Shown here piece by piece: positions 4,789 to 42,164 of a stretch of DNA of 64,000 nucleotides (position 1 is its first letter; each line of letters opens with the position of its first letter). Source of the DNA: Marinobacter subterrani (GTDB lineage: Bacteria; Pseudomonadota; Gammaproteobacteria; Pseudomonadales; Oleiphilaceae). The notes under the pieces were generated by a model. That model did not search any database. It saw only the letters and a list, made by a program, of their open reading frames with translations, and was not told where the DNA came from. The stretch covers positions 2,046,001-2,110,000 of the forward strand of contig NZ_LFBU01000001.1 of NCBI RefSeq assembly GCF_001045555.1, given 5' to 3'. The position numbers were made by a program, and so were the translations under genes.

Positions 4789-4892
4789 CTGAGGCAGGTA
4801 AGGCTTTCCGAAACACGCTGTCAATACGTCCCTGTACGCTTGAGCGCAGCATCCCTGCTGCGCACAGTTCCGGAAAGCCTTACCTGCCTCAG
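4789..4892 (+). repeat. Y-shaped inverted repeat E1 (forward)
   Basis: Outer stem 4789-4810 / 4871-4892, 22 bp, perfect. Inner hairpin A: TACG-TCCC-TGTA (4825-4836). Inner hairpin B: GCGCAGCA-TCCC-TGCTGCGC (4844-4863). It fills the atuA-atuB gap, starting 15 bp after the atuA stop and ending 30 bp before atuB. No T-tract follows the stem, so it is not a standard intrinsic terminator. Confidence 0.9.
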
Positions 4893-4922
4893 CGCCCGAA
4901 CTTCGATAAGGGTCATCCAGAA

Positions 4923-5789
4923 ATGAGCTATCAATCTGTTTTTCGTCCGGACTTGTTTAAAGGCCATGTATTTATTGTCACCGGCGGTGGTTCCGGCATC
5001 GGCCGGTGTACGGCCCATGAACTTGCGGCCCTGGGTGCGCGGGTTGCCCTGGTGGGCCGTAAGGCCGAGAAAGTGGAGTCTGTAAAAGCAGAGATCACCG
5101 AAGACGGAGGCGTTGCCTCGGCTCATGTCTGCGATATCCGGGAAGAGGAATCTGTGAAAGCCACCGTCAAGGCGATTATTGCCGAACATGGCGGCCTGAA
5201 TGGTTTGGTGAACAACGCCGGTGGCCAGTTTCAGGCACCACTGACCGGGATTAATCAGAAGGGCTGGGAGACCGTCGTCCGCACCAATCTGACCGGCGGC
5301 TTTCTGATGGCTCGGGAAGCCTACACGCAGGCACTGTCGAAAACCGGGGGTGCCATCGTCAATATCGTGGCCGATATGTGGGGCGGCATGCCGGGCATGG
5401 GGCACTCGGGCGCCGCCCGGGCGGGAATGGTGAACTTTACCCAGACAGCCGCCGTTGAATGGGGCGCTTCCGGCGTTCGGGTGAACGCAGTTGCTCCGGG
5501 CTGGATTGCCTCCAGTGGCATGGATAACTACCCGGAACACATGAAGCAGTGGATCCGCAGCCTTGGCGATAACGTGCCCATCAAGCGGATGGGTACCGAA
5601 TCCGAAGTCAGCTCGGCCATCTGCTTTCTGCTCAGTCCGGGGGCGGCGTTTATCAGCGGCGACTGCCTGCGAATCGACGGCGGCGCCTCCCAGGGTGGTC
5701 GGGTCTGGCCGTTGCCGAAGGCCAGGAACAACGAGCCCTACAACGGCTTTCACCGGGCCATAACCCCGAAAGTTCTGAGCGACGACTGA
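4923..5789 (+). CDS. atuB: SDR-family oxidoreductase of the atu cluster (enoyl-CoA reductase-like)
   Basis: 288 residues, short-chain dehydrogenase/reductase. The N-terminal NAD(P) motif is TGGGSGIG (~residues 20-27) and NNAGG is near residue 97. At the usual YxxxK catalytic position the sequence reads SGAAR, so the canonical Tyr and Lys are Ser and Arg. SGAARAGM, AVEWG, VRVNAVAPG, and the tail CFLLSPGAAFISG resemble peroxisomal trans-2-enoyl-CoA reductase (PECR) and dienoyl-CoA reductases more than alcohol dehydrogenases. The position matches atuB, often proposed to oxidise citronellol or citronellal; the sequence suggests a CoA-thioester reductase instead. atuC starts 10 bp downstream with its ribosome site overlapping this stop. 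Confidence 0.85.
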   Translation: MSYQSVFRPDLFKGHVFIVTGGGSGIGRCTAHELAALGARVALVGRKAEKVESVKAEITEDGGVASAHVCDIREEESVKATVKAIIAEHGGLNGLVNNAGGQFQAPLTGINQKGWETVVRTNLTGGFLMAREAYTQALSKTGGAIVNIVADMWGGMPGMGHSGAARAGMVNFTQTAAVEWGASGVRVNAVAPGWIASSGMDNYPEHMKQWIRSLGDNVPIKRMGTESEVSSAICFLLSPGAAFISGDCLRIDGGASQGGRVWPLPKARNNEPYNGFHRAITPKVLSDD

Positions 5790-5799
5790 GGAGCCGCAC

Positions 5800-7416
5800 A
5801 TGCAGGTACTTGAATCCACCGTCAGCTCCCAGTCCGCAGACTTTGGCAACAACGCTGAAGCCATGGAAGCCCACATCACGACGTTCCGGGACGTTGAACA
5901 GAAGGTGCTGGATCTGGCAGAGGCCGCCCGGGAGAAATTCACCAAGCGGGGCAAGCTGTTGCCCCGGGATCGGATCAACCGGTTGCTGGATCGCGGCATG
6001 CCCTTCCTGGAGCTCTGCTCCCTGGCCGGCTACAAGATGCACGACGACAAGGACGGCAGCCAGGCCGGCGGCGGGATTATCGCCGGCATTGGTTATGTCA
6101 GTGGCATCCGTTGCCTGATCGTTGCCAGCAACAGCGCCATCAAGGGCGGCACCATTACCCCAGCCGGTCTGGACAAGACCCTGCGGCTGCAGCAGATCGC
6201 CATGGAAAACAAGCTGCCGGTTGTATCCCTCTCCGAGAGCGGCGGCGCCAACCTGAATTATGCAACCGACATTTTTGTGCTGGGCGCCCGGGGCTTTGCC
6301 AACCAGGCCAGGATGTCCGCTGCCGGCATTCCCCAGGTCACGGTGGTCCACGGCAACGCCACGGCAGGCGGTGCCTACCAGCCAGGCCTGTCCGATTATG
6401 TAATCGTGGTGCGCGAGCAAGCCAAGATGTTCCTCGCCGGCCCGCCATTGCTGAAGGCTGCCACCGGCGAAATTGCCACCGACGAAGAACTCGGCGGCGC
6501 GGAGATGCATGCCACGGTGGCAGGGACAGCGGAGTATCTGGCCGAAGACGACTCCGACGGCATCCGCCAGGCAAGAAACATCCTCGAGGCCCTGCCCTGG
6601 AACGAGCAACTGCCGCCCCGGCGCGAGCTTCAATGGGAGGAGCCGCTCTACCCGGCTGACGAACTGCTGGGCGTGATCCCGGCAGATGCCAGGAAACCCT
6701 ACGACGTTCGGGAAATTCTGGCCCGTATCGCCGACAGCTCAAAGTTCATGGACTTCAAGAACGAGTTTGACGACCAGACGGTGTGCGGCACCATCCGGAT
6801 CGAAGGCCACTCGGTTGGCATCATCGGCAACAACGGCCCGATCACACCGGCAGGCTCCGCCAAGGCCGCCCAGTTTATCCAGCTCTGTGACCAGGCGGGC
6901 ACGCCCCTGCTGTTCCTGCACAACACCACCGGTTTCATGGTGGGCACCCACTCAGAGCAGAACGGCATCATCAAACACGGCTCGAAGATGATCCAGGCCG
7001 TGGCCAATTGTCGGGTGCCAAAGGTCGCAATTGTGATCGGCGGTTCCTATGGTGCAGGTAACTACGCCATGTGCGGGCGGGGGCTGGACCCAAGGTTCAT
7101 CTTCGCCTGGCCCAACAGCCGAACGGCGGTCATGGGCCCGGCACAGGCGGGCAAGGTGATGCGCATTGTGGCGGAGGACAAGCAACGCCGCGGCGGCGTG
7201 GAGCCGGATCCGAAGACACTGGACTTTCTGGAACAGGCGACGGCCAAGAAACTGGAGGAAGGCTCTACGGCGCTGTTTGGAACAGCCCGGTTGTGGGATG
7301 ACGGGCTGATTGATCCGCGGGATACCCGGCGGGTTCTGGCTCTGGTTCTCGACGTTTGCCGCGAGGCCGAGGCTCGGCAGTTGCGGCCTAATACGTTTGG
7401 GGTGGCCCGCTTGTAG
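5800..7416 (+). CDS. atuC: Geranyl-CoA carboxylase, beta (carboxyltransferase) subunit
   Basis: 538 residues, the usual length for acyl-CoA carboxyltransferase beta subunits. Both halves of the carboxyltransferase fold are present: the N-terminal half with SGGANLNYATDIFVLGARGF and GNATAGGAY, and the C-terminal half with NNGPITPAGSAKAAQFI, GGSYGAGNYAMCGRG and FAWPNSRTAVMGPAQAG. It transfers CO2 from carboxybiotin on AtuF to the gamma-methyl of geranyl-CoA, making isohexenylglutaconyl-CoA. ATG 5800 follows GAGGAG. It could be mistaken for the methylcrotonyl-CoA carboxylase subunit LiuB; the flanking atuA, atuD, atuE and atuF favour AtuC. Confidence 0.9.
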   Translation: MQVLESTVSSQSADFGNNAEAMEAHITTFRDVEQKVLDLAEAAREKFTKRGKLLPRDRINRLLDRGMPFLELCSLAGYKMHDDKDGSQAGGGIIAGIGYVSGIRCLIVASNSAIKGGTITPAGLDKTLRLQQIAMENKLPVVSLSESGGANLNYATDIFVLGARGFANQARMSAAGIPQVTVVHGNATAGGAYQPGLSDYVIVVREQAKMFLAGPPLLKAATGEIATDEELGGAEMHATVAGTAEYLAEDDSDGIRQARNILEALPWNEQLPPRRELQWEEPLYPADELLGVIPADARKPYDVREILARIADSSKFMDFKNEFDDQTVCGTIRIEGHSVGIIGNNGPITPAGSAKAAQFIQLCDQAGTPLLFLHNTTGFMVGTHSEQNGIIKHGSKMIQAVANCRVPKVAIVIGGSYGAGNYAMCGRGLDPRFIFAWPNSRTAVMGPAQAGKVMRIVAEDKQRRGGVEPDPKTLDFLEQATAKKLEEGSTALFGTARLWDDGLIDPRDTRRVLALVLDVCREAEARQLRPNTFGVARL

Positions 7417-7468
7417 GCCTTTTCGGCTTGGGTGGGGCCCGCCTCTTGGCCTTCGAGCTTTGGGGCTG

Positions 7469-7577
7469 GAACCGGGGCGGAGGGCTTCCCAAAAAACGCC
7501 CGTAAATACGTCCCTGTAGGGCTCGGTCGCGCCATCCCTGGCGCTCCACGTTTTTGGGAAGCCCTCCGCCCCGGTTC
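7469..7577 (+). repeat. Y-shaped inverted repeat E2 (forward)
   Basis: Outer stem 7469-7498 / 7549-7577, 29 bp with one bulged A in an A6/T5 tract. Hairpin A: TACG-TCCC-TGTA (7507-7518). Hairpin B: GCGCCA-TCCC-TGGCGC (7529-7544). Starts 52 bp after the atuC stop. Pairs with E3 in opposite orientation. Confidence 0.9.
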
Positions 7578-7640
7578 TGGTCGACCACGAGTTATCGTTT
7601 TAAGAGAGAAAGCTTTTCCACTAATCAAGAGAACAAACAC

Positions 7641-7731
7641 GTAGGTCGGATTTGCCAAAGGCGTAATCCGACAAAAATGCCAGGGCACTCCGCCAATCTG
7701 TCGGATTACGCCTTCGGCTAATCCGACCTAC
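7641..7731. repeat. GTAGGTCGGATT inverted repeat R1
   Basis: Arms 7641-7672 and 7700-7731 are 32 bp each and agree at 30 positions when inverted, around a 27-base centre. Each arm itself contains the small hairpin CGGATTNGCCNAAGGCGTAATCCG. A single arm recurs at 9266-9297. Unrelated in sequence to E2 and E3, which flank it. GTAGGTCGGATT repeats of this kind are widespread in gammaproteobacterial intergenic DNA (from memory). Confidence 0.85.
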
Positions 7732-7776
7732 AGAGACAACAAAACTGTCAGCAGGTAGCAACAAACTTGCAGACAG

Positions 7777-7890
7777 CAGCGAGAGCGGGGGCAGGCTTTC
7801 AGAAAATGTAGAGGGCCAAGGATGGCCCGAAACAAGCGCACATGGATGTGCTCGTAGCGGTTTTCTGAAAGCCTGCCCCCGCTCTCGCTG
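7777..7890 (-). repeat. Y-shaped inverted repeat E3 (reverse)
   Basis: Outer stem 7777-7806 / 7861-7890, 30 bp, perfect. Read on the minus strand: hairpin A GCACA-TCCA-TGTGC, hairpin B GGGCCA-TCCT-TGGCCC. Ends 66 bp before atuD. Confidence 0.9.
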
Positions 7891-7956
7891 ACCAGATTAG
7901 CGAACGTGCTCTAACAGCACGTAGGCACGAACTTTCTTAACAAGGAGAACAAGAAC

Positions 7957-9117
7957 GTGAAATTCACACCCGAACACGAAGCCCTTCGAAAAACCGTCCG
8001 CGATTTCGTGGAGAAGGAAATCAACCCGCACTGCGACGAATGGGAAGCCGCCGGGGAGTTCCCCATTCATGAGCTGTTCAAGAAGCTCGGCAACCTGGGA
8101 ATCCTGGGCATCCAGAAACCGGAAGAATACGGCGGTATGGGGCTGGATTACAGCTACAACCTGGTGGCGGCGGAAGAACTGGGCATGGCTCATTGTGGCG
8201 GTGTTCCGCTGGCCATCGGGGTGCAGACCGATATGTGTACCCCGGCCATTTCCCGGTTTGGTTCCGATGAACTCAAACGCAGCTTCCTGGCCCCGGCCAT
8301 TGCCGGCGACATGGTGGGATGCATTGGCGTCAGCGAGGTTGGCGCGGGTTCCGATGTGGCGGGGATGAAAACGACCGCCAGGAAAGACGGTGACGACTAC
8401 ATCATCAACGGCTCCAAGATGTGGATCACCAACAGCCCCAAATCCGACTTCATCTGCCTGCTGGCCAACACCTCGGACGACAAGCCCCACAAGAACAAAT
8501 CCCTGATCGTGGTTCCCACCAAAACACCGGGCATTTCCTTCAGCCCGCATTTGAACAAACTGGGTATGCGTTCCTCGGAAACCGCGCAGATTTTCTTTGA
8601 CGACGTGCGCGTGCCGCAGCGTTATCGCATCGGCGCCGAAGGCACCGGTTTCATGATGCAGATGCTGCAGTTCCAGGAGGAGCGCCTCTGGGGTGCCGCC
8701 AACGTAATCAAGGCACTGGAAAACTGCATTACCAAAACCATCGAATACTGCCGCGAGCGCAAGACCTTCGGTCAGCCGCTGATCGACAACCAGGTCATTC
8801 ACTTCCGCCTGGCAGAACTGCAAACCGAGGTCGAGGCCCTCCGAGCCCTCACCTACCAGGCCTGTGAGCTGCACGTTGAGGGTAAGGATGTGACCCGTCT
8901 GGCGTCCATGGCCAAGCTCAAGGCCGGGCGCCTGGGGCGCGAGGTTACGGACAGCTGCCTGCAGTACTGGGGCGGCAACGGTTACATGTGGGATAACCCG
9001 ATTTCCCGGGCACACCGGGATGTGCGGCTGGTGTCCATCGGCGGTGGTGCCGATGAAATCATGCTCGGGATTATCTGCAAGATGATGGGGATCTTGCCGG
9101 GCAAGAAGCGCGACTGA
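7957..9117 (+). CDS. atuD: Citronellyl-CoA dehydrogenase (acyl-CoA dehydrogenase family)
   Basis: 386 residues, full acyl-CoA dehydrogenase length. GTG start with AAGGAG nine bases upstream. FAD and substrate motifs include CIGVSEVGAGSDVAGMKTTA and KMWITNS in the middle domain and YWGGNGYMWDNPISRAHRD near the C-terminus. Where straight-chain dehydrogenases carry the catalytic Glu (YEGT), this protein has IGGGADEIM, as in isovaleryl-CoA-type enzymes whose base lies on another helix; this suits a branched substrate. It would oxidise citronellyl-CoA to geranyl-CoA, the substrate of AtuC/AtuF. E4 follows 23 bp after the stop. Confidence 0.85.
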   Translation: MKFTPEHEALRKTVRDFVEKEINPHCDEWEAAGEFPIHELFKKLGNLGILGIQKPEEYGGMGLDYSYNLVAAEELGMAHCGGVPLAIGVQTDMCTPAISRFGSDELKRSFLAPAIAGDMVGCIGVSEVGAGSDVAGMKTTARKDGDDYIINGSKMWITNSPKSDFICLLANTSDDKPHKNKSLIVVPTKTPGISFSPHLNKLGMRSSETAQIFFDDVRVPQRYRIGAEGTGFMMQMLQFQEERLWGAANVIKALENCITKTIEYCRERKTFGQPLIDNQVIHFRLAELQTEVEALRALTYQACELHVEGKDVTRLASMAKLKAGRLGREVTDSCLQYWGGNGYMWDNPISRAHRDVRLVSIGGGADEIMLGIICKMMGILPGKKRD

Positions 9118-9140
9118 GGGGTCAGGCTTTGGTGCATGGC

Positions 9141-9249
9141 CGGTGGCCCGGTAGTTCTGTCCAGGACACGCCCGCAAGTACATCCGTGCAGGGCTCGATC
9201 GGGCCATCCCTGGCCCTCAACGGTCCTGGACAGAACTACCGGGCCACCG
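9141..9249 (+). repeat. Y-shaped inverted repeat E4 (forward)
   Basis: Outer stem 9141-9167 / 9223-9249, 27 bp, perfect. Hairpin A region ACA-TCCG-TGC is weaker than in other copies. Hairpin B: GGGCCA-TCCC-TGGCCC. Lies between atuD and atuE. Confidence 0.88.
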
Positions 9250-9265
9250 ACCCCGAACTTGGTTT

Positions 9266-9297
9266 GTCGGATTACGCCTTTGGCTAATCCGACCTAC
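9266..9297. repeat. Single arm of the GTAGGTCGGATT repeat (R2)
   Basis: GTCGGATTACGCC followed by TTTGGCTAATCCGACCTAC: near-identical to the right arm of R1 at 7700-7731, and it forms the small hairpin CGGATTACGCC/GGCTAATCCG. It sits 16 bp after E4, as R1 sits beside E2 and E3. Confidence 0.8.
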
Positions 9298-9352
9298 GGA
9301 CCGACAGGCTCTGAAAGCCTGATGGCTCCATACCTGAAGACTGGAGTTATGT

Positions 9353-10174
9353 ATGGACCAGCTACCACATTGCGAAACACTGCTTCTGGAAAAACAGGGC
9401 CCTACCCTGTTTATCACCATCAACCGTCCGGACGTTCGAAACGCCATGAGCCTGCAGATGGTGGCGGAACTTTCCACGGTCTTCTCCCAGATCCAAGAAG
9501 ATCTTCACATCCGCACCGTCGTGATCCGTGGCGCCGGTGGTCACTTCTGCGCCGGCGGTGATATCAAAGACATGGCCGGTGCCCGGGGACAGAAAGCGGC
9601 CGAAGGCGAGGCCGATCCGTTCTACCGCCTGAACCGGGCCTTCGGCCAGATGATCCAACAGGTCAACGAATCCTCGAAAGTGGTCATCGCGGTTACAGAA
9701 GGCGCGGTCATGGGCGGTGGCTTCGGCCTGGCCTGCGTCTCCGACATCGCCATCGCCGGACCATCAGCAAAATTCGGCATGCCGGAAACCTCCCTCGGCG
9801 TCATTCCCGCCCAGATTGCGCCGTTTGTGGTTGAACGGATCGGCCTCACACAGGCCCGGCGGCTGGCTTTGCTCGGTTTGAGAATCGATGCGAACGAGGC
9901 TTGCAGTCTTGGAATCGTCCACCAGACGGCAACTTCGAATGCTGAACTGGAAGAGATGCTGGCTGGCGCTCTGGATCGAGTTCGCCAGTGCGCACCGATT
10001 GCCACCGCTGAAACCAAGGCGTTGCTGCATCGGGTTGGCCATGAGCCGATGAGCGGTCTGCTTGACAGCGCGGCTGAGAAATTTGCGGAAGCTATTCGGG
10101 GCAGCGAAGGAACCGAGGGCACCATGGCCTTCATGCAGAAACGCCCACCAGCCTGGGCAGAATCCAACGACTGA
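9353..10174 (+). CDS. atuE: Isohexenylglutaconyl-CoA hydratase (crotonase family)
   Basis: 273 residues, typical enoyl-CoA hydratase size. Oxyanion-hole segments are GGHFCAGGDIKDM (~residue 62) and EGAVMGGGFGLACVSD (~residue 115). Of the two hydratase glutamates, the second is present (GMPETSLGVIP), while the first position reads GFG, lacking Glu, as in methylglutaconyl-type hydratases acting on branched glutaconyl-CoA. It would hydrate the product of the geranyl-CoA carboxylase. ATG 9353 follows GGAG. Flanked by E4 upstream and E5 11 bp downstream. Confidence 0.85.
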   Translation: MDQLPHCETLLLEKQGPTLFITINRPDVRNAMSLQMVAELSTVFSQIQEDLHIRTVVIRGAGGHFCAGGDIKDMAGARGQKAAEGEADPFYRLNRAFGQMIQQVNESSKVVIAVTEGAVMGGGFGLACVSDIAIAGPSAKFGMPETSLGVIPAQIAPFVVERIGLTQARRLALLGLRIDANEACSLGIVHQTATSNAELEEMLAGALDRVRQCAPIATAETKALLHRVGHEPMSGLLDSAAEKFAEAIRGSEGTEGTMAFMQKRPPAWAESND

Positions 10175-10185
10175 ATTACGGGGGA

Positions 10186-10299
10186 GCGAGTGGGTGTGGG
10201 GTGGCTTTCAGGAAATGTCGGCGGCCATGGATGGCCGACGCCAAGCGCACATGGATGTGCTCGTAGCGGTTTCCTGAAAGCCACCCCACAGCCGCTCGC
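10186..10299 (-). repeat. Y-shaped inverted repeat E5 (reverse)
   Basis: Outer stem 10186-10215 / 10270-10299, 30 bp with two mismatches near the open end. On the minus strand: hairpin A GCACA-TCCA-TGTGC, hairpin B CGGCCA-TCCA-TGGCCG. It fills the atuE-atuF gap and ends 30 bp before atuF. Confidence 0.9.
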
Positions 10300-10329
10300 G
10301 GACTGGCACCAATAGATGAGACCAGCACC

Positions 10330-12306
10330 ATGTTAAGAAAACTGTTAATAGCCAACCGAGGCGAAATCGCCGTCCGGGTCATCCGCACCGCGAAAGCCCT
10401 GGGTTACCGCACCGTGGCTGTCTACTCCGAGGCTGACGCCAAAGCCGTGCATGTGGAAATGGCCGACGAAGCCGTCTGCATCGGCCCGGCACAAGTATCC
10501 GCCTCCTACCTGAACAGCGACGCCATCCTCGACGCCGCCCGCAGAACCGGCGCCGACTGCATCCACCCGGGTTACGGCTTCCTCTCCGAGAATGCTGCCT
10601 TCGCCACTGCCTGCAAAGAAGCCGGCCTGGTCTTCGTTGGCCCGCCAGCAGCTGCCATCGAACTGATGGGCAGCAAGCGGCGATCCAAAATCGCCATGCA
10701 GGAAGCCGGTGTGCCCGTGGTGCCCGGCTACGAAGGCAACAACGCCAGTGACGATGAACTCATCATCGCAGCCAAAGACATCGGCTACCCCCTGATGATC
10801 AAAGCCTCCGCCGGCGGCGGTGGCCGCGGCATGCGACTGGTTGAGAGTGAATCCGAACTGGCCGAAAACATCAAACGGGCCCGCTCCGAGTCGAAACAGG
10901 CCTTCGGCGACGACGAACTGATCCTCGAGAAGGCCGTGATCGAGCCCCGCCACGTGGAAATCCAGGTGTTCGCCGACAGCCAAGGTAACGCCGTGTACCT
11001 GGGCGAGCGGGACTGCTCCGTGCAGCGCCGGCACCAGAAAGTAGTCGAGGAAGCGCCCTCCCCCTTTGTAACACCGGAACTGCGCCAGGCCATGGGCGAG
11101 GCCGCGGTCAAAGCGGCGCTGGCCTGCAATTACGAGGGTGCCGGCACCGTCGAGTTTCTGGTCGACAAACACCGGAATTTCTATTTCCTGGAAATGAACA
11201 CCCGCCTGCAGGTGGAACATCCGGTCACCGAGCTGATTACCGGCCAGGATCTGGTCGCCTGGCAGCTCAGGGTCGCCGAAGGACTCCCTTTGCCCCTGGC
11301 CCAGGACGATATCCACCTGAACGGCCATGCCATCGAGGTACGGCTGTATGCCGAAGACCCTGCCCACGGCTTCACGCCCCAGACGGGCCCATTGCTCGAA
11401 TTCAAGCCGGCCGCGGGCGAAGGCCTGCGATTTGATACCGGGGTACGTTCCGGAGACGCCATCACACCCCACTACGACCCCATGCTGGCAAAAGTCATTG
11501 CCTGGGGCCGGAACCGCGATGAAGCCCGGCGCCGGCTGATCCGGGCCCTGGAGGACACCACCATATTCGGCGTCACCACCAACCGCCATTTCCTGAGCCG
11601 GATCATCGCCAATGAGACCTTCGGTGCCGGCGAGGCCACCACCGCCTTCCTGCAGCAGGCGTTCAGCGATGATCCCTCCCTGCAGCCCCAGACTCTGGAC
11701 ATTCGCCAGCTGGCCCTGGCCGCCTGCGTGCTCGACCATGGCATGTCAGGCCAGAGCGCCTGGAGCAATGCCCCGGCTACCATGACGCCAATCAAGCTGG
11801 CAACCGGCGACAGCACCGTTGAGTTACTGGTCACCCGCAGCGGCAACCGGCTGTCGGTCAGCATGGGCGAAGTCCGGCACACCCTGGAGCTGGTAAGCCA
11901 GCGCGATGGTCTTTTGTGCATTATCGACAACGGGGTTCGTCAGACTTGCCAATACCATCGCCAGGGCAATTCCCTATATTTGCAGGCGTTCGGGCAGTCC
12001 TGGTCGGTGCGGGACATTACCCACCAGCCGGCAACCGGCCCCAAAGGCGTTGGCAGCGGTCGCATCCAGGCAACCATGGATGGCGCCATTATTGATGTAC
12101 TGGTCGAGGCCGGCCACAGTGTTCGCCAGGGCGATACGCTGGTGATTCTGGAAGCCATGAAAATGGAGCATCCGGTGAAGGCAGACCGCGACGGCATCGT
12201 CGGCGAGGTCCATGCCCGCAAGGGTGACCAGGTAAAACGCAGCCAGTTGCTGGTGGAAATCACTGCGGACCAGAATGCCGAACGGGAGAGCACCGCGAAA
12301 CCCTGA
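10330..12306 (+). CDS. atuF: Geranyl-CoA carboxylase, alpha (biotin carboxylase/biotin carrier) subunit
   Basis: 658 residues. Domains in order: biotin carboxylase N-domain (~1-110, LIANRGEIAVRVIRTAKALG), ATP-grasp (~115-320, KASAGGGGRGMR, EMNTRLQVEHPVTE), biotin carboxylase C-domain (~335-445, RLYAEDP), a linker, and a C-terminal biotinyl domain with EAMKMEH (Lys ~611 is the biotin site). It carboxylates its own biotin with ATP and bicarbonate and hands CO2 to AtuC. The same architecture occurs in methylcrotonyl-CoA carboxylase (LiuD); context supports AtuF. The next gene begins 18 bp downstream, so the two are co-transcribed. Confidence 0.9.
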   Translation: MLRKLLIANRGEIAVRVIRTAKALGYRTVAVYSEADAKAVHVEMADEAVCIGPAQVSASYLNSDAILDAARRTGADCIHPGYGFLSENAAFATACKEAGLVFVGPPAAAIELMGSKRRSKIAMQEAGVPVVPGYEGNNASDDELIIAAKDIGYPLMIKASAGGGGRGMRLVESESELAENIKRARSESKQAFGDDELILEKAVIEPRHVEIQVFADSQGNAVYLGERDCSVQRRHQKVVEEAPSPFVTPELRQAMGEAAVKAALACNYEGAGTVEFLVDKHRNFYFLEMNTRLQVEHPVTELITGQDLVAWQLRVAEGLPLPLAQDDIHLNGHAIEVRLYAEDPAHGFTPQTGPLLEFKPAAGEGLRFDTGVRSGDAITPHYDPMLAKVIAWGRNRDEARRRLIRALEDTTIFGVTTNRHFLSRIIANETFGAGEATTAFLQQAFSDDPSLQPQTLDIRQLALAACVLDHGMSGQSAWSNAPATMTPIKLATGDSTVELLVTRSGNRLSVSMGEVRHTLELVSQRDGLLCIIDNGVRQTCQYHRQGNSLYLQAFGQSWSVRDITHQPATGPKGVGSGRIQATMDGAIIDVLVEAGHSVRQGDTLVILEAMKMEHPVKADRDGIVGEVHARKGDQVKRSQLLVEITADQNAERESTAKP

Positions 12307-12324
12307 GCCGGGCAAGGAACCCTC

Positions 12325-14199: not shown

Positions 14200-14306
14200 G
14201 CATTGGTGGTAACCCCCTCCCAAAAAACGCTACAAGCACATCCATGTGCGCTTGGCTCCGCCATCCATGGCTCCGCACATTTTTGGGAGGGGGTTACAAC
14301 CAATGC
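14200..14306 (+). repeat. Y-shaped inverted repeat E6 (forward)
   Basis: Outer stem 14200-14226 / 14280-14306, 27 bp, one mismatch. Hairpin A: GCACA-TCCA-TGTGC. Hairpin B: GCCA-TCCA-TGGC. Begins 45 bp after the atuH stop. Confidence 0.9.
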
Positions 14307-14374: not shown

Positions 14375-14486
14375 ACGCCGTGTCGGGCAGGCCTTCCCAA
14401 AAATGTTGGAGGCCATGGATGGCCGGAAACAAGCGCACATGGACGTGCTCGTAGCGGTTTTTGGGAAGGCCTGCCCGACATGGCGT
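14375..14486 (-). repeat. Y-shaped inverted repeat E7 (reverse)
   Basis: Outer stem 14375-14403 / 14458-14486, 29 bp, one mismatch. On the minus strand: hairpin A GCACG-TCCA-TGTGC, hairpin B GGCCA-TCCA-TGGCC. It lies 31 bp downstream of the oxidoreductase stop and 68 bp from E6. Confidence 0.9.
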
Positions 14487-34328: not shown

Positions 34329-34379
34329 AAAAACCGCAAACCCTACCCACTCTGTTACCGAGTGAGCCGGGTTTGCGGT
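34329..34379 (-). terminator. Intrinsic terminator of phoX
   Basis: ACCGCAAACCC and GGGTTTGCGGT form an 11-bp stem with a smaller inner pairing (ACTC/GAGT) in the loop. Read on the minus strand, the stem is followed by T6, right behind the phoX stop at 34407. Confidence 0.75.
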
Positions 34380-34406
34380 GTTCAGGTGCTTGGTGTGGCG
34401 GCGGAA

Positions 34407-36434: not shown

Positions 36435-36485
36435 GGTAATGCCTCTCTCAAAGAACTGCAGGTCGGTGTTGTCGAGAGGCCAGTT

Positions 36486-36504
36486 TCGGCAGGAAATATG
36501 ACAG
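36486..36504 (-). promoter_or_regulatory. Possible partial Pho box upstream of phoX
   Basis: On the minus strand the sequence reads CTGTCATATTTCCTGCCGA. The first half is a perfect CTGTCAT direct-repeat unit of the PhoB box with the usual AT spacer; the second unit (CTGCCGA) is degenerate and offset by one base. It fits a phosphate-starvation gene but is weak by itself. Confidence 0.35.
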
Positions 36505-36617
36505 TAAGCGTACGTTTGAAAGACAAACTTGTTAACATTATTTTACAGAGCCAAGGGCCGGCTCGGTATAAGGATCGCCCCGCGCAACATGCTGCAACGG
36601 AGCGATCAGCCAGTCAT

Positions 36618-36914
36618 TTACTGTTTTGTGGCGTCTTCGTAGCCCTCTTCAATGGCATCACCCGCCTCTTCGGCGGCATCCCCCATCTCATCGGCCGCAT
36701 TTTCCGCGCCCTGTTTCATTTCGCCCATGGCGCCGTCGGCCTGGCCTGTGGCTTCCTCGTAGGTCTGTTCGACGGACTCACCGGCTTCCTCCATCATATC
36801 GCCGGCGTTATCTGCAGCCTTTTCGACATCCACACCTTCGTTGTCTTCAGAACTGCAGGCAGCAAGGCCGAGTGTCAGTACCATCAAAAGCGCACTCATT
36901 GTGAGCTTGTTCAT
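36618..36914 (-). CDS. Small acidic lipoprotein with repetitive helices
   Basis: 98 residues from ATG 36914 (GAGGG upstream; the longer frame has no ribosome site). The leader MNKLTMSALLMVLTLGLAAC ends in a LAAC lipobox. The mature ~80 residues are Glu/Ala/Gly/Asp-rich with recurring 7- and 11-residue units (DNAGDMMEEAGESVEQTYEE, then AENAADEMGDAAEEAGDAIE), predicted as an extended amphipathic helix or coiled coil. Such proteins may act as periplasmic spacers or stress proteins; the function is not known. Confidence 0.78.
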   Translation of the reverse strand: MNKLTMSALLMVLTLGLAACSSEDNEGVDVEKAADNAGDMMEEAGESVEQTYEEATGQADGAMGEMKQGAENAADEMGDAAEEAGDAIEEGYEDATKQ

Positions 36915-37005
36915 ACCATATCCCTCTGTTGGTAAGTATCTACAACGGGGAACAGAGTACGGCGAGGCCCGGGACAAAGGCAATTACCGGCCGATTACCC
37001 TTTGG

Positions 37006-37257
37006 TTAGCCGGCGCTGTCGGTCAGCAACCGGCCATTGATGGTAATGACATGATCGAACGGAAGCAGAGTGCCCCGGCCCAGCAGCAAAAAGTCCTGCC
37101 CGGCCCGGCTGCACAGGTCGCGGATAACATCGTGCACCTGGCACACCTGACCCGCGCTGTCCCGGTAGATCACCTCGGTCAGTTGTCCTGACCCCAGATA
37201 CTCCCGAAGCATGCCCTGAACGGAGTACGAGGCCGTAGCGGGGGATACATTTGGCAT
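37006..37257 (-). CDS. Small conserved-looking protein, possibly Rof/Sm-like fold
   Basis: 83 residues, ATG 37257 preceded by AGGGA. No signal peptide or membrane helix. The sequence (YSVQGMLREYLGSGQLTEVI, YRDSAGQVCQVHDVIRDLCS, then QDFLLLGRGTLLPFDHVITI) alternates short beta-like strands with one helix and resembles small SH3/Sm-like regulators such as Rof, but I cannot identify it firmly. Divergent from alkB, so the two may share the 180-bp control region. Confidence 0.6.
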   Translation of the reverse strand: MPNVSPATASYSVQGMLREYLGSGQLTEVIYRDSAGQVCQVHDVIRDLCSRAGQDFLLLGRGTLLPFDHVITINGRLLTDSAG

Positions 37258-37330
37258 GGCTGATTCTTCCCTGTTGTCGAGCTCTTGTTTTCCCCAAAGT
37301 CTGGCTCAGAAACCGGGATTTCGCCAAAAC

Positions 37331-37346
37331 AATGACATTTGTCATT
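37331..37346. promoter_or_regulatory. Inverted repeat upstream of alkB
   Basis: AATGACA-TT-TGTCATT: perfect 7-bp arms with a 2-base spacer, about 50 bp upstream of the predicted alkB -35 element. Candidate operator for alkB or the divergent small gene. Confidence 0.35.
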
Positions 37347-37366
37347 TTGCGCCAAGCTGCCTCTCC

Positions 37367-37409
37367 TGAGTGCGCACTCATTGCATTGTCTGATTGTCCG
37401 ACATAAATT
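37367..37409 (+). promoter_or_regulatory. Predicted alkB promoter with adjacent 14-bp palindrome
   Basis: TTGCAT (37381-37386) and TAAATT (37404-37409) are 17 bp apart and lie 31 bp before the alkB ATG. Immediately upstream, abutting the -35, is the perfect palindrome TGAGTGCGCACTCA (37367-37380). Its position suits an activator, or a repressor hindering polymerase. The regulator is not known; the glxA-type gene at 42182 is a candidate only by proximity. Confidence 0.5.
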
Positions 37410-37439
37410 TCAGTGACGTGCATCGAACGGGAGAGAACA

Positions 37440-38708
37440 ATGAACGCCAACAGTCCTGATAATCTGCAATCCCATAAAGTGGCCTCGCCTGCCGAAGAAG
37501 AGGCGACCGGCAAATGGAAGGACCCGAAACGCTATCTGTGGCTGCTTGGCCCTGCCCTGCCAGGCATCGGCCTGGCGGCCCTGACCGGTTACGCCCTGGC
37601 GCCGAAAAAACTGAAAGCTCTGGCCTGGACAGGCCCAGCTTTGGTGCACGGCATTATCCCGGCCCTGGACCGGGCCATTGGCGAGGATCAGAGCAACCCG
37701 CCGGAATCGGCTGTGAACCCCCTGGAGCAGGACAAGTATTACGACCGGATCGTGAAGGCTTTTATCCCGACCCAGTACGCCATGACCTTTCTCGGCGCCT
37801 GGCTGGCCAGCCGTAAAAGCACGCCGCTGGATGACAGGATCGGGCTGATGCTGACGGTTGGCGGGATCAATGGAGTGGGCATCAACACAGCCCATGAGCT
37901 TGGCCACAAATCCAACAGACTGAACAAACTGCTGGCAATGGCAGCCCTGGCCCCCACCGGCTATACCCACTTTGTGGTGGAGCACAACTTCGGCCACCAC
38001 AAGCGGGTGGCAACGCCGGAGGATCCGGCCAGCAGCCGTATGGGTGAGAGCTTCTGGAAGTTCCTGCCACGCACGGTCATCGGCGGTATCAAGTCATCCA
38101 TCCGGATTGAAAAGGCGCGGCTGGAGCGCAAAGGGAAAGGCTTCTGGAGTCTGGACAACGAGTTGCTGCAGGGCTGGGCCATGAGCGCCGGGTTCTTTGG
38201 GGCAACCACACTGGTTTGCGGGCGACGGGCGGTGCCGTTCCTGGCGGCCCAGGCGGTGTATGGCGCCAGCCTGCTGGAGAGCGTGAATTACATCGAGCAC
38301 TACGGCTTGCTGCGCCAGAAGGACAAGAATGGCAAGTACGAGCGCACCCAACCGGAACACAGCTGGAACAGCAACCATGTTGTGACCAACCTGTTCCTGT
38401 ACCAGTTGCAGCGGCACTCGGACCACCATGCGCACCCGCAACGCAGCTACCAGGCACTCAGACACTTCGAGAAAGCGCCGCAGTTACCGGGTGGCTATGC
38501 CTCGATGCTATTGCCCGCATACCTGCCCCAGTGGTGGTATGAAACCATGGATAAGCGCGTGATTGATCACTACGAAGGGGATCTGAGCAAGATCAACTGG
38601 GATCCGGACCGGAAAGAGGAACTGATGGCCAGGTATGCGGACTACGCAGCTGAGGTCGCCGCCGAGGCTGAGGCCAGGCGTAATTCTGAAAACTCCGAAG
38701 CGGCCTGA
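37440..38708 (+). CDS. alkB: Alkane 1-monooxygenase AlkB
   Basis: 422 residues from ATG 37440 with GGGAG upstream. All histidine boxes of the di-iron membrane hydroxylase are present: HELGHK (152-157), EHNFGHH (181-187) and LQRHSDHH (323-330), plus the AlkB signature NYIEHYGL (283-290). Several hydrophobic helices place it in the inner membrane. It hydroxylates the terminal methyl of medium/long alkanes with O2 and electrons from rubredoxin; no rubredoxin or rubredoxin reductase gene is in this window. Followed after 50 bp by element E8. Confidence 0.95.
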   Translation: MNANSPDNLQSHKVASPAEEEATGKWKDPKRYLWLLGPALPGIGLAALTGYALAPKKLKALAWTGPALVHGIIPALDRAIGEDQSNPPESAVNPLEQDKYYDRIVKAFIPTQYAMTFLGAWLASRKSTPLDDRIGLMLTVGGINGVGINTAHELGHKSNRLNKLLAMAALAPTGYTHFVVEHNFGHHKRVATPEDPASSRMGESFWKFLPRTVIGGIKSSIRIEKARLERKGKGFWSLDNELLQGWAMSAGFFGATTLVCGRRAVPFLAAQAVYGASLLESVNYIEHYGLLRQKDKNGKYERTQPEHSWNSNHVVTNLFLYQLQRHSDHHAHPQRSYQALRHFEKAPQLPGGYASMLLPAYLPQWWYETMDKRVIDHYEGDLSKINWDPDRKEELMARYADYAAEVAAEAEARRNSENSEAA

Positions 38709-38758
38709 TTCTCGCCGCCTGCTTCAACTCTGGCCCCAGCCTTCCCGGTACTGTGCAG

Positions 38759-38866
38759 GCGGCCAACCGATGACGCCTTCCGGGAGCCGCCGTAAACCCA
38801 TCCATGGGGGCTTGAGCGCAGCATCCATGCTGCGCACACTCCCGGAAGACGTCATAGGCCGGCCGC
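38759..38866 (+). repeat. Y-shaped inverted repeat E8 (forward)
   Basis: Outer stem 38759-38786 / 38839-38866, 28 positions with four mismatches, the most eroded copy. Hairpin A: CCCA-TCCA-TGGG. Hairpin B: GCGCAGCA-TCCA-TGCTGCGC. It lies in the convergent gap between alkB and the crotonase gene. Confidence 0.88.
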
Positions 38867-38938
38867 TTCTCACTTTGGAGAAATAGTCAGGTTAGCTTGA
38901 ACGCTTCAACCAAAACTCACCTGATGCACCAAAAGTAG

Positions 38939-39718
38939 CTATTTCCCTTTGAATACGGCTTCCCGCCTTTCCAGGAAGGACTGAATTCCTTCCTTTACAT
39001 CGTCACTGGCCATGACCGGCTGCAAATCCGGAAACAACCGCTGCTTCGCGACTTCCTGCCCTTCACTGACCGCGATCTTCGAGGATTTCAGGCTGCCCTG
39101 GACACCCAACGGGGCGGCTTTCGCAATCTTCTCGGCGATTTCCAGCGCAACCGCGAACTGCTCACCCGGCTCCACCAGTTCCTGAATCAAGCCCCACTGG
39201 TATGCCTGCTCGGCATTCCACTCATCACCCGTCAGCAGGTACCGCTGGGCATTGCCCCAGCCGATTTCCCGTTGCAGGCGGATTGTTGCTCCACCGCAAG
39301 CGAAGATGCCGCGTTTCACTTCCAGCTGGGCGAAGCGCGTGCCTTTGGCCGCGACGCGAACGTCGGAGTTCAGCATCATTTCAACGCCGCAGGTGAAACA
39401 GATACCCTGGGCGGCGAAGACCACCGGTTTGCTCAGCCCCTGTCCGGTAATGTGGAACGGGTCCAGCTCGCCCTCGCCCGGCTCTATGCCTTTGCCGTTG
39501 GCAAAGACACCCGCCCAGTCGTCGAGTTGCAGGCCGCTGGTGAAGTGGTCGCCTTCGGCATGCATCAGCCCGACCCGCAGCTCCGGGTCGTTTTCCAGCT
39601 GGTAATAGGCCGCCGCGATCTGGTGATACATCTCGCGGTTCATGGCGTTCATTTTTTCCGGGCGGTTCAGCCCGATCAGCAAGATGTGATTTTTCTTTTC
39701 AACGGTTACCAGTGACAT
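38939..39718 (-). CDS. Enoyl-CoA hydratase/isomerase (crotonase family)
   Basis: 259 residues from ATG 39718 (GAGGA eight bases upstream). Oxyanion-hole segments: GDHFTSGLQLDDWA (~residue 57) and AQGICFTCGVEMMLNSDVRV (~residue 104). Both hydratase glutamates appear present (GVEMM and AQLEV). Likely a cytosolic beta-oxidation or related CoA-thioester enzyme; the gene neighbours alkB and an acyl-CoA dehydrogenase. The exact substrate is unknown. E9 lies upstream, in its promoter/leader region. Confidence 0.85.
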   Translation of the reverse strand: MSLVTVEKKNHILLIGLNRPEKMNAMNREMYHQIAAAYYQLENDPELRVGLMHAEGDHFTSGLQLDDWAGVFANGKGIEPGEGELDPFHITGQGLSKPVVFAAQGICFTCGVEMMLNSDVRVAAKGTRFAQLEVKRGIFACGGATIRLQREIGWGNAQRYLLTGDEWNAEQAYQWGLIQELVEPGEQFAVALEIAEKIAKAAPLGVQGSLKSSKIAVSEGQEVAKQRLFPDLQPVMASDDVKEGIQSFLERREAVFKGK

Positions 39719-39775
39719 CGGATTTGTCCTCATCTTTGGGCCCCCAGCCTGCCCGTTATGGTGTCAGCACGATCA

Positions 39776-39871
39776 ACGGGGAACGCCTTCCGGGACACGC
39801 TACGAGCACGTCCCTGTGCGCTCGGCTGTGGCCATCCTTGGCCACAGACGGTCCCGGAAGGCGTTCCCCGT
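39776..39871 (+). repeat. Y-shaped inverted repeat E9 (forward)
   Basis: Outer stem 39776-39796 / 39851-39871, 21 bp, perfect. Hairpin A: GCACG-TCCC-TGTGC. Hairpin B: CTGTGGCCA-TCCT-TGGCCACAG (39826-39847), the longest B stem of the family. Confidence 0.9.
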
Positions 39872-39981
39872 CGCTCGCGCTCTGAATCTGGCAGTTATAC
39901 GGGAAAGTTTCTTTTTACCTATGAGTAGCCTCTGCGCGGAGTCCCGCCTCCTTGGAGAATTTCACCGAAATCTGGACACGG

Positions 39982-40082
39982 TCGGCCGGCAGGCCTTTCC
40001 GGGACCGTTGAGGGCCAGGGATGGCCCGATCGAGCCTACAGGGACGTACTTGCGGCGTGTCCCGGAAAGGCCTGCCGGCCGA
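39982..40082 (-). repeat. Y-shaped inverted repeat E10 (reverse)
   Basis: Outer stem 39982-40005 / 40059-40082, 24 bp, perfect. On the minus strand: hairpin A TACG-TCCC-TGTA, hairpin B GGGCCA-TCCC-TGGCCC. It lies 37 bp downstream of the acyl-CoA dehydrogenase stop. Confidence 0.9.
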
Positions 40083-40119
40083 GCGTGCAACCACCCGAAA
40101 CATCAGGCTACAAACAGAA

Positions 40120-41922
40120 TCAGAACCAATCGGCTTTCATGTTCAGGCAGGTATCGTCCTGATTGCGCAGCAGCACCAGATCCTGGGCCACGGCTGGCAA
40201 TTCCCAGTGGAAAAAATACTGGGCCGCCTGCAGCTTGCCCTGGTAGAAATTGCGCTCATCATCGGTGTTGGCAGAACCCAGGGCGTGGGCCGCAGCGTTG
40301 GCCTGGCGCAGCCACATCCAGGCAACAATGATGTGCCCGAAGAGGTGCAGGTAGCAGGAGGCATTCGCCAGGGTTTTGTCGGGGTCGCCTTCCATCAGGG
40401 ATTTACCCAGGCTCTGGGTGACTTTCACCGCCTGTTGCAGGGTTTCACTCAGGGACAGGGCCCATTGCTGGCAGCGATCGGTGGTGGCTGCCTGCAGGTC
40501 TACCTGCATGGCCTGCATCAACAGTTGCAGGCCGTGGCTCTGATCCTGCCAGATCTTCCGGCCCAGCAGGTCGAGGGCCTGGATACCGTTGGTGCCCTCG
40601 TGAATCGGGTTCAGGCGATTGTCGCGCCAGCATTGTTCTACCGGATACTCCCGGGTGTATCCCGCGCCACCGTATACCTGGATGGCCAGGTCGTTGGCCT
40701 TGGGACCGTATTCGGAAGGCCAGGCCTTGATCACCGGTGTGAGCAGGTCCAGCAGCTTGCCGGCTTCCAGGCGTTTCTGTTGGTCCGGATGGGTGTGCTG
40801 GTCATCCATCAGTCGGGCGCCATAGAGACACAGGGCCAGGCCACCTTCGCTGTAGGCTTTCTGGGCCAATAGCATACGCCGGACATCGGCATGATCAATG
40901 ATGGGTACCTGTGGTGACTCAGGGTCTTTCTCGCTGACCTTGCGGCCTTGCAGCCGGTCCTTGGCGTATTCCAGGCTGTGCATGTAACCGCGATAGCCAA
41001 TCACGGCAGCACCAAAACCCACACCAACCCGCGCTTCATTCATCATCTGGAACATGTACTTCAGGCCCTGGTGGGGCTCGCCAACCAGGTAGCCATGGCA
41101 GGGGGCATCGTCGCCGAAACTCAGGGCGGTGGAGGTGGTACCCCGGTAACCGAGCTTATGGATCAGGCCGGCAAGACTTACGCCGTTGCGTTCGGTGGGG
41201 TTGCCTTCGTCGTCCACCAGGAATTTCGGCACGATGAACAGGGAGATGCCCTTCACGCCTGCCGGCGCACCTTTGATCTTGGCCAGCACCATGTGGACGA
41301 TGTTATCGGTGATGGACTGCTCGCCACCGGAGATATAGATCTTGGCGCCCTTGATCAGGTAATGGCCTTCTTCGGTGGGCGATGCGGACGTACGGATATC
41401 CGCCAGGGAGGAGCCTGCATGGGGCTCGGTCAGAGCCATGGTGCCGCTGAAGCGGCCGCTGAGCATGTTCGGCAAAAACGTGGCCTGCTGCTGCTCGTTA
41501 CCGAAGACGCGAATAAGATTGGCCGCGGCGGTGGTCAGGAACGGGTAGCCGGCGGTGCCGGGGTTGGCGGCGGTAAAGAAACCGTTACAGGCGGCCATGA
41601 CCGATTCGGGCAGTTGCATGCCGCCCAGCTCGTAATCATAACGTCCGGCGATGAAGCCAGCCTGGGCATAGGCATCGAAGGCTTCTTTGACCTGGGGCAG
41701 CATCTCGACCTGGCCGTTGACGAATTTCGGCTCGTCTTTGTCGGCGGCGCTGTTGTGGGTGGCGAACTTTTCCCGGGCCATTTTGTCGGCGGTTTCGATG
41801 ACGGCATCGAAGGTGTCGCGGTTGTGTTCGCTGAAGCGCTCGCGGGTGGTGAGGTTTTCGGTATCGAGGACTTCGTAGAGTTGGAACGCCAGGTCGCGGC
41901 GGTCGATCAGGGTATCGGTCAT
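40120..41922 (-). CDS. Acyl-CoA dehydrogenase, 600-residue form
   Basis: 600 residues, the large bacterial class (as in Pseudomonas PA0506/PA0508 or DmdC) with an extra C-terminal helical domain of ~130 residues. N-terminal and middle domains carry GTMALTEPHAGSSLADIRTS (~residue 160) and KIYISGGEQSITDNIVHMVL. The C-terminal dehydrogenase domain has VYGGAGYTREYPVEQCWRDN and the catalytic Glu in IHEGTNGIQALDLLGRK. It introduces the alpha-beta double bond into fatty acyl-CoA, consistent with oxidation of AlkB products. AGGAG precedes the ATG. Confidence 0.9.
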   Translation of the reverse strand: MTDTLIDRRDLAFQLYEVLDTENLTTRERFSEHNRDTFDAVIETADKMAREKFATHNSAADKDEPKFVNGQVEMLPQVKEAFDAYAQAGFIAGRYDYELGGMQLPESVMAACNGFFTAANPGTAGYPFLTTAAANLIRVFGNEQQQATFLPNMLSGRFSGTMALTEPHAGSSLADIRTSASPTEEGHYLIKGAKIYISGGEQSITDNIVHMVLAKIKGAPAGVKGISLFIVPKFLVDDEGNPTERNGVSLAGLIHKLGYRGTTSTALSFGDDAPCHGYLVGEPHQGLKYMFQMMNEARVGVGFGAAVIGYRGYMHSLEYAKDRLQGRKVSEKDPESPQVPIIDHADVRRMLLAQKAYSEGGLALCLYGARLMDDQHTHPDQQKRLEAGKLLDLLTPVIKAWPSEYGPKANDLAIQVYGGAGYTREYPVEQCWRDNRLNPIHEGTNGIQALDLLGRKIWQDQSHGLQLLMQAMQVDLQAATTDRCQQWALSLSETLQQAVKVTQSLGKSLMEGDPDKTLANASCYLHLFGHIIVAWMWLRQANAAAHALGSANTDDERNFYQGKLQAAQYFFHWELPAVAQDLVLLRNQDDTCLNMKADWF

Positions 41923-42054
41923 TCTTGGTCTCCTGTTTGTTGCCGACAGCCTCTCACAACTGGTTTTTTCTGGGAACCGGCGTTTATGACATAATCATGG
42001 TGGTTCTCGCCATTGCCCGCTGGACACTGGGTTCGGCTGGTGTTCGCCGGCCGG

Positions 42055-42164
42055 GCACGAGCGCGGGGGCAACGTCCCGAGACACGCCGTGAATACATCC
42101 ATGTAGGCTTGAGTGCAGCATCCATGCTGCACACAGTCCCGGGACGTTGCCCCCGCGCTCGCGC
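42055..42164 (+). repeat. Y-shaped inverted repeat E11 (forward)
   Basis: Outer stem 42055-42083 / 42136-42164, 29 bp with two mismatches. Hairpin A: TACA-TCCA-TGTA. Hairpin B: GTGCAGCA-TCCA-TGCTGCAC. Unlike the others it lies between divergent genes, and it ends only 17 bp before the start of the regulator gene, so it is probably part of that mRNA leader. Confidence 0.9.

What the first reader, a model, noticed from the sequence alone, without database searches (positions are those of the whole stretch)
4789..42164. Eleven-copy family of Y-shaped intergenic elements with a double TCCN-loop head
E1-E11 (4789, 7469, 7777, 9141, 10186, 14200, 14375, 38759, 39776, 39982, 42055) share one plan: a 21-30 bp outer stem enclosing two hairpins, A then B. 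Both hairpin loops are TCCN in every copy (22 of 22: TCCC, TCCA, TCCT or TCCG). The B stem varies with compensation (GCGCAGCA/TGCTGCGC, GCGCCA/TGGCGC, GGGCCA/TGGCCC, CGGCCA/TGGCCG, CTGTGGCCA/TGGCCACAG, GTGCAGCA/TGCTGCAC), which argues that the fold, not the sequence, is kept. They are not classic terminators (no T-tract follows), REPs of the simple kind, or attC sites. I cannot say whether the family has been described.
Basis: seen in the sequence. Interest (0 to 1): 0.85.

Follow-up and report, generated by a model that had tools for sequence, protein, structure and literature searches.

The report
Dispersed Y-shaped RNA repeats in Marinobacter
The eleven Y-shaped elements are real copies of a repeat that occurs more than a hundred times in this genome; two separately catalogued bacterial RNA families look like its two strands, and the strand that evolution preserves carries two hairpins matching the binding site of the global regulator CsrA, although no binding or transcription has been tested here.

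Summary
A covariance model of the 11 window copies finds 114 sites in the genome (lower bound), matches in 60 of 61 genomes of the genus, and in 48 of 274 of the class, patchily. The ~27-bp outer stem is nearly always paired but differs from copy to copy; the head is conserved.

The family is not undescribed. Nearly all are below Rfam cut-offs (E5 alone passes, 43.7 vs 43 bits, in a narrow scan).

The strand under selection is the NGGA strand: its stem mismatches are G.U (64), hardly ever A.C (2), whatever the neighbouring genes' direction. Its two hairpins fit CANGGANG (207 of 210 scored), mostly 23-25 nt apart, like CsrA/RsmA dual sites.

Best reading: a dispersed, long-stemmed TwoAYGGAY variant acting as CsrA-binding RNA. 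Against it: no promoter signal, and orientation ignores transcription, so a DNA-level repeat stays open. Pairs within one intergenic region are convergent (18 of 18 here), unexplained. RAYT/REP membership is rejected.

The parts
4789..4892 (+). E1; the strand given here and below is the TCCN-loop strand, the NGGA strand is the complement. Between two + genes
   Evidence: (79.5 bits)
7469..7577 (+). E2, left member of convergent pair E2/E3
   Evidence: 84.0 bits; same orientation in 12 of 12 congener copies of the first set
7777..7890 (-). E3, right member of convergent pair E2/E3
   Evidence: 96.8 bits; 14 of 14 congener copies of the first set
9141..9249 (+). E4, single, between two + genes
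   Evidence: 81.2 bits; same orientation in 22 of 22 and 13 of 13 congener copies; present in 38 of 64 genomes examined, own included
10186..10299 (-). E5, single, between two + genes; its NGGA strand (+) is the one Rfam TwoAYGGAY match over cut-off, 10179-10306
   Evidence: 43.7 bits, cut-off 43; 96.7 bits; 26 of 26 congener copies of the first set same orientation, 26 - and 9 + in the second set, several as pairs
14200..14306 (+). E6, left member of convergent pair E6/E7, between convergent genes
   Evidence: (88.1 bits)
14375..14486 (-). E7, right member of convergent pair E6/E7
   Evidence: (93.8 bits)
38757..38867 (+). E8, single, imperfect outer stem, between convergent genes
   Evidence: (79.4 bits)
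39774..39873 (+). E9, left member of convergent pair E9/E10, between two - genes
   Evidence: (97.1 bits)
39978..40086 (-). E10, right member of convergent pair E9/E10
   Evidence: (92.0 bits)
42055..42164 (+). E11, single, between divergent genes
   Evidence: (81.3 bits)

Best explanation
Each element is one copy of a dispersed, long-stemmed variant of the RNA family that Rfam holds as TwoAYGGAY; Ysr224 matches the complementary strand of the same element. The functional molecule is the RNA of the NGGA strand: a ~27-bp clamp of free sequence holds two small hairpins whose six-base loops read A-N-GGA-N between a closing C-G, 23-25 nt apart. These are two CsrA/RsmA sites placed so that one CsrA dimer can bridge them. 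In the cell the copies would act as a distributed CsrA decoy and, where they lie in a leader or between genes, as local CsrA landing pads. Shown: family identity, copy number, strand of selection, loop consensus and spacing. Inferred: that the RNA is made from every copy, that CsrA binds it, and that titration is the benefit.
For: Strand: outer-stem mismatches at 26 fixed positions, read on the TCC strand, are A.C 64 vs G.T 2, C.C 13 vs G.G 1, C.T 17 vs G.A 8 in 109 of 110 own copies; 50 vs 2, 10 vs 3, 12 vs 2 in 72 of 73 congener copies; 65 vs 26, 22 vs 4, 58 vs 6 in 83 of 115 copies of other genera, the rest dropped by a pairing filter or for missing sequence (numbers used). Read on the NGGA strand this is wobble tolerance; in the own genome, and pooled with the congeners, the bias falls in the RNA-like order G.U > G.G > G.A. 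It holds in all four gene contexts (divergent 15:1, tandem TCC-sense 14:0, tandem NGGA-sense 14:1, convergent 21:0). In congener copies where a near relative allowed a call, A.C arose from A-T pairs 26 times and from G-C pairs 19 times, so cytosine deamination alone does not explain it. The NGGA fold is the more stable in 99 of 110. Loops: CANGGANG in 105 of 105 B and 102 of 105 A hairpins (own, 5 of 110 elements not scored), 73 of 73 and 71 of 73 (congeners), the two N positions varying; spacing 23-25 in 102 of 105. The A before NGGA is kept in 109 of 109 A hairpins scored although the facing base is C in 51. PMC7652899 (passages): CsrA SELEX consensus RUACARGGAUGU, mostly hexaloops, variable N positions, bridging of sites 10-63 nt apart. 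PMC4333381 (passage) proposed from motif matches that TwoAYGGAY binds CsrA. PMC12112432 (passage): multicopy Ysr224 transcripts with different expression profiles. Family: 48 of 48 TwoAYGGAY and 20 of 20 Ysr224 hits fall on R1 sites, on opposite strands.
Against: Orientation ignores the genes: tandem same 34, tandem opposite 31, convergent 26, divergent 23 of 114, so read-through mRNA cannot supply the NGGA strand everywhere. No sigma70-type promoter enrichment in either flank: right flank, NGGA direction, mean best score 3.28 vs 3.24 shuffled, and -10-like hexamers in that direction are fewer than in shuffles. 4 of 48 element-bearing class genomes have no CsrA match, one of them (G295, by its absence from the match list) 98% complete. 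CsrA SELEX hairpins mostly have four or fewer pairs, and the 27-bp clamp is not part of that consensus. The convergent-pair rule is not predicted. Ysr224 is annotated on the other strand. In other genera the G.U bias is weaker (65:26) and the order G.U > G.G > G.A is not seen; nor is it in congeners alone. The TCC of each loop was required by the finder, and 79 of the 115 other-genus elements were fetched with a pattern that imposes part of the loop.
Confidence: 0.5

Rival explanations
1. A DNA-level chromosomal repeat (REP/BIME- or MITE-like): the NGGA strand folds as single-stranded DNA or as one arm of an extruded cruciform and is recognised by an unknown protein that spreads, flips or organises copies. 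RNA is incidental.
For: Orientation independent of transcription. Pairs within one intergenic region are convergent in 18 of 18 in this genome, in 17 of 17 in 34 further congener loci (partly the same sites), and in 15 of 18 class-wide, the other three being tandem and none divergent (4 of the 15 are Marinobacter and 2 are copies of one unit in G178). Orientation alternates across an intervening gene in 17 of 20. A pair unit of about 360 bp is repeated in G178. In G166 the element sits inside a larger repeat with its head in both orientations. Multicopy but patchy in the class. PMC3733652 (abstract and passages) describes REP dimers mostly in inverted orientation and REP dimers seated inside palindromes.
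Against: Orthologous sites mostly keep the same orientation: 74 of 74 at four sites in the first congener set and 13 of 13 at E4 in the second, though the E5 region has 26 - and 9 + there. The own-genome mismatch bias is RNA-like rather than the near-equal preference for G.T, G.G and G.A that I recall for DNA. No target-duplication signal, no Y1 transposase link, no match on plasmids or phages with one consensus query.
Confidence: 0.32
2. Ordinary 3'-end elements: bidirectional terminators or stabilisers of mRNA ends, kept because a long stem blocks exonucleases or polymerase.
For: No copy lies inside a called gene (three overlap a called gene by 18-45 bp); 26 of 114 lie between convergent genes; stems are long and stable.
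Against: 23 of 114 lie between divergent genes, where no mRNA ends, and the stem bias is the same there. No T-tract follows: T reaches only 42-49% at +20 to +22. Does not explain the two conserved loops.
Confidence: 0.08
3. REP elements mobilised by a RAYT transposase.
For: Palindromic, intergenic, over 100 copies, inverted pairs.
Against: 14 congeners with 52-73 counted copies have no Y1_Tnp match, and G004 with 6 copies has 22. Size and architecture differ from the 20-40 bp GTAG/CGTC REPs.
Confidence: 0.03

Closest known systems
TwoAYGGAY RNA, Rfam RF01731 (listed in PMC2864571; its table row read)
   Same: Two hairpins with AYGGAY-type loops side by side on a common outer stem; 48 of 48 hits (E <= 1) in this genome fall on these elements, NGGA strand; E5 passes the cut-off in a narrow scan.
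   Different: Only 1 of 11 window copies passes the cut-off in the narrow scans, and none in the scan of the whole window. Here the outer stem is a ~27-bp near-perfect helix of copy-specific sequence and sites exceed 110 per genome. The 2010 table lists human gut, Gammaproteobacteria and Clostridiales.
Ysr224, Rfam RF02770
   Same: 20 of 20 hits (E <= 1) fall on these elements on the TCC strand; reported as multicopy with different expression profiles in PMC12112432 and as among the most abundant sRNA annotations in PMC9029176 (passages).
   Different: Best score here 33.8 against a cut-off of 70 bits; described as a Yersinia sRNA, opposite strand to the one under selection here.
CsrA-sequestering sRNAs (CsrB, RsmY, RsmZ)
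   Same: GGA in hairpin loops fitting the CsrA consensus, with spacing that allows dual-site binding.
   Different: Two sites per copy on a long stem, dispersed in over 100 loci; binding not tested. CsrB itself is not detected in 61 genomes of the genus; RsmZ and RsmY have no match over cut-off in 19 relatives, own included, although 4 and 13 of the 19 have sub-threshold ones.
REP / BIME / REPIN repeats
   Same: Intergenic, palindromic, high copy, inverted pairs.
   Different: No RAYT link, about 110 bp, Y-shaped; spacers of the pairs looked at by eye are not shared.

Membership tests
TwoAYGGAY (RF01731) | two adjacent hairpins with AYGGAY-type loops | tested here: met
   CANGGANG in 105 of 105 and 102 of 105 hairpins scored
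TwoAYGGAY (RF01731) | outer stem enclosing both | tested here: met
   helix 1, 15 modelled pairs, 98.3% of cells paired
TwoAYGGAY (RF01731) | score at or above the gathering cut-off (43 bits) | tested here: inconclusive
   E5 43.7 in a 9.9-kb scan; 0 in the whole-window scan; best in the genome search 42.6, where E5 itself is not among the 48 listed
Ysr224 (RF02770) | score at or above the cut-off (70 bits) | tested here: not met
   best 33.8
CsrA-binding RNA | ANGGAN hexaloop hairpins, two or more, 10-63 nt apart | tested here: met
CsrA-binding RNA | binds CsrA and is transcribed on that strand | not testable with these tools
   no binding or RNA-seq data; promoter scan negative
RAYT-associated REP | co-occurrence with a Y1 tyrosine transposase | tested here: not met
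   14 high-copy genomes without one; 22 matches in a 6-copy genome
Intrinsic terminator | T-tract directly after the stem | tested here: not met
   flank composition
MITE / insertion sequence | target-site duplication | tested here: not met
   similarity of an element's own left and right flanks equals shuffled pairing, 5.92 vs 5.91 (30-base windows only)
integron attC | R and L core sites recognised by an integron integrase | not tested
   considered from memory only

The most novel reading that the evidence does not exclude
The CsrA decoy of these bacteria is not one or two sRNA genes but an interspersed repeat: over a hundred scattered Y-shaped units, each keeping an NGGA-strand RNA fold with a bridged CsrA site, whatever the direction of its neighbours. 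Rfam has catalogued its two strands as unrelated RNAs, and the convergent-pair rule means that any transcript through a paired intergenic region meets a TCC unit first and an NGGA unit second.
Probability: 0.28. Interest if true: 0.85.

Novelty: new variant of a known kind. Interest (0 to 1): 0.6.

Why it matters
It joins two Rfam families into one repeat and shows by strand-biased mismatches which strand is kept. It gives the CsrA proposal for TwoAYGGAY (PMC4333381, passage) a genome-scale test bed: more than a hundred natural copies with fixed loops and free stems. If CsrA binds, global regulation in many Gammaproteobacteria would include a dispersed repeat as its buffer. If it does not, a strand-specific fold kept at over a hundred sites independently of transcription would be a puzzle of its own.

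Tried and rejected
One search counted stem mismatches too far beyond the stem ends and gave G.T 66 vs A.C 71; with the register fixed the bias is 64:2, so one search is superseded. Element-specific target duplications: none. Sigma70 promoters in either flank: no enrichment. Replication-strand bias: orientation mixed (37 + and 42 - in one zone of constant skew), and the mismatch bias is the same for both. RAYT: rejected. CsrA presence does not separate element-bearing (44 of 48) from other genomes (191 of 226). The left-flank T-richness seen in this genome is weaker in named Marinobacter records and absent in other genera, so it is not a family trait. CGTC-REP resemblance of hairpin B seen by eye: the described CGTC stems begin with AT, these do not (by eye). 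Repeat names in print: the listings of searches showed no description of this repeat; the search for TwoAYGGAY, Ysr224 and their accessions listed four papers, none holding both names. PMC9788540 (abstract and passages) describes different CsrA-related sRNAs in Alcanivorax that were not among its Rfam-annotated sRNAs, so absence of Rfam RsmY/RsmZ matches over cut-off is weak evidence. Site states for E5 and E2/E3 used a regular expression that missed many copies; only its E4 states are used, and the covariance model agrees with them in all 34 later loci checked. In some searches the gene end was misplaced for L307 and L324; the long branch of L307 in the tree is such an artefact.
Full report
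OBSERVATION. Read with TCCN loops, seven lie on + and four (E3, E5, E7, E10) on -. All 22 loops are TCCN. The outer stems are exact over 18-30 bp in ten copies; E8 is imperfect. Covariation on 116 aligned matches is far above both controls for double changes and covariation score; the number of pair types is not.

COPY NUMBER AND SPREAD. Model R1, built from the 11 copies, finds 114 matches at E <= 0.1 in the host genome (4.45 Mb, two contigs), with 150 of 3484 first-look candidates scored, so this is a lower bound. Four of the 114 have an insert of about 90 nt at the tip of hairpin A and were dropped, leaving 110 for the counts below. In 61 genomes of the genus, own included, 60 have matches, from 3 to 73 (73 is the scoring cap); one has none. 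Across the class 48 of 274 genomes match, own included, 43 of them at least twice (at most 16 candidates scored each). The genus is inferred to be Marinobacter: contig G035:C7 of a congener and a named Marinobacter record (L221) have the same length, 725877 bases. Viral contigs held 3 stretches matching a head pattern; plasmids and phages none to one consensus query.

KNOWN FAMILIES. At Rfam gathering thresholds the window has no hit, nor do the elements in 40 further loci scanned (the hits there are other RNAs). In narrower scans E5 scores 43.7 against 43 for TwoAYGGAY, and E1 28.4 against 70 for Ysr224. In the whole genome all 48 TwoAYGGAY hits (E <= 1; 150 of 221 candidates scored, E5 not among them) overlap R1 sites on the opposite strand, and all 20 Ysr224 hits overlap them on the same strand. 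The two Rfam families thus match the two strands of one element. No paper listed holds both names.

WHICH STRAND MATTERS. The outer stem pairs over about 27 positions with copy-specific sequence. Its mismatches, read on the TCC strand at 26 fixed positions, are A.C 64 and G.T 2; C.C 13 and G.G 1; C.T 17 and G.A 8 (109 of 110 copies). Congener copies (72 of 73) give 50:2, 10:3, 12:2; other genera (83 of 115) 65:26, 22:4, 58:6. On the complementary strand these are wobbles and G-containing mismatches. The bias is the same between divergent, convergent and tandem genes of either sense, and in congeners the A.C cases arise from A-T pairs (26) as well as G-C pairs (19). The NGGA strand is therefore the one whose fold is kept, independently of neighbouring transcription. 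In the own genome, and pooled with the congeners, the order G.U > G.G > G.A favours RNA over single-stranded DNA (energies of DNA mismatches recalled); congeners alone and other genera do not show that order, so DNA is not excluded.

LOOPS. On that strand both hairpins read C-A-N-GGA-N-G: own genome 105 of 105 (B) and 102 of 105 (A), with 5 of 110 elements not scored; congeners 73 of 73 and 71 of 73; other genera 101 of 104 and 104 of 104, with 11 of 115 not scored and 79 of 115 fetched by a pattern that imposes part of the loop. The finder required TCC, so GGA itself is not independent evidence; the flanking C, A and G and the freedom of the two N positions are. The A stays although the facing base is C in 51 of 109 A hairpins. 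The GGA spacing is 23-25 nt in 102 of 105. This matches the CsrA consensus and dual-site spacing given in PMC7652899 (passages). PMC4333381 had proposed CsrA for TwoAYGGAY from motif matches (passage). CsrA is present in the host (2 matches).

EVOLUTION IN PLACE. Four window sites were followed in a first set of congener loci: E2 12 of 12 +, E3 14 of 14 -, E4 22 of 22 +, E5 26 of 26 -. In 34 further loci E4 is + in 13 of 13, the E2/E3 region has 12 + and 12 -, and the E5 region 26 - and 9 + in 28 loci, so orientation is conserved but not absolutely so at E5. At one site the middle of the stem changes freely between species yet stays paired, and head types differ. At E4, 38 of 64 genomes carry the element and 26 do not (chosen among genomes that matched the query). 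Eleven changes on a tree of the flanking genes, against 21 in shuffles, fit an old element lost several times. Several empty sites keep stem remnants, by eye.

ARRANGEMENT. By my own simple gene caller no copy lies inside a gene and three overlap one by 18-45 bp; 65 of 114 lie between tandem genes (34 same, 31 opposite), 26 between convergent and 23 between divergent genes. Two copies in one intergenic region are always TCC-convergent here: 18 of 18, gaps 57-224 bp. In 34 congener loci it is 17 of 17; class-wide 15 of 18, three tandem (L162, L177, L201), none divergent. Copies separated by a gene alternate in 17 of 20. In this genome the TCC-strand left flank is A-poor and T-rich for about 100 bp in every gene context, the right flank balanced; other genera show no such skew. 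No promoter signal was found. I have no mechanism for the pair rule.

VERDICT. An Rfam-known motif in a long-stemmed, high-copy, strand-selected variant. CsrA binding is the best-supported function; transcription of the NGGA strand is the missing step.

Noticed in passing
window 7641-7731 and about 9266-9297; also beside elements near C1 216 kb, 277 kb, 1976 kb and 3067 kb of the genome: A second palindromic repeat (GTAGGTCGGATTA...TAATCCGACCTAC) often lies on the right-flank side of these elements or inside pair spacers; its k-mers are enriched in right flanks and almost absent from left flanks.
   Followed up: partly
genome C1 216104, 276937, 1975600, 3067229: Four copies have the tip of hairpin A replaced by about 90 nt with further small hairpins.
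   Followed up: no
L132, L159-L170 (G166): The element is embedded in a larger repeat of about 365 bp, with its head in both orientations relative to the same flanks.
   Followed up: partly
TCC-strand left flanks of 110 copies in this genome: A-poor, T-rich for about 100 bp outside the stem in every gene context, with a weak TTTGGNGC motif near -20; the right flank is balanced with a weak ACTTTNGAGT motif near +18. Not seen in other genera.
   Followed up: partly
window 4.8-14.5 kb and 38.7-42.1 kb: All 11 copies sit in two clusters beside genes that look by eye like acyl-CoA catabolism (no family search was run); the model finds none elsewhere in the window.
   Followed up: no
L200, L201, L228, L256: Head matches in MAG contigs titled Klebsiella pneumoniae; the heads are of the same kind as in other genera, so the titles may be wrong.
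   Followed up: no
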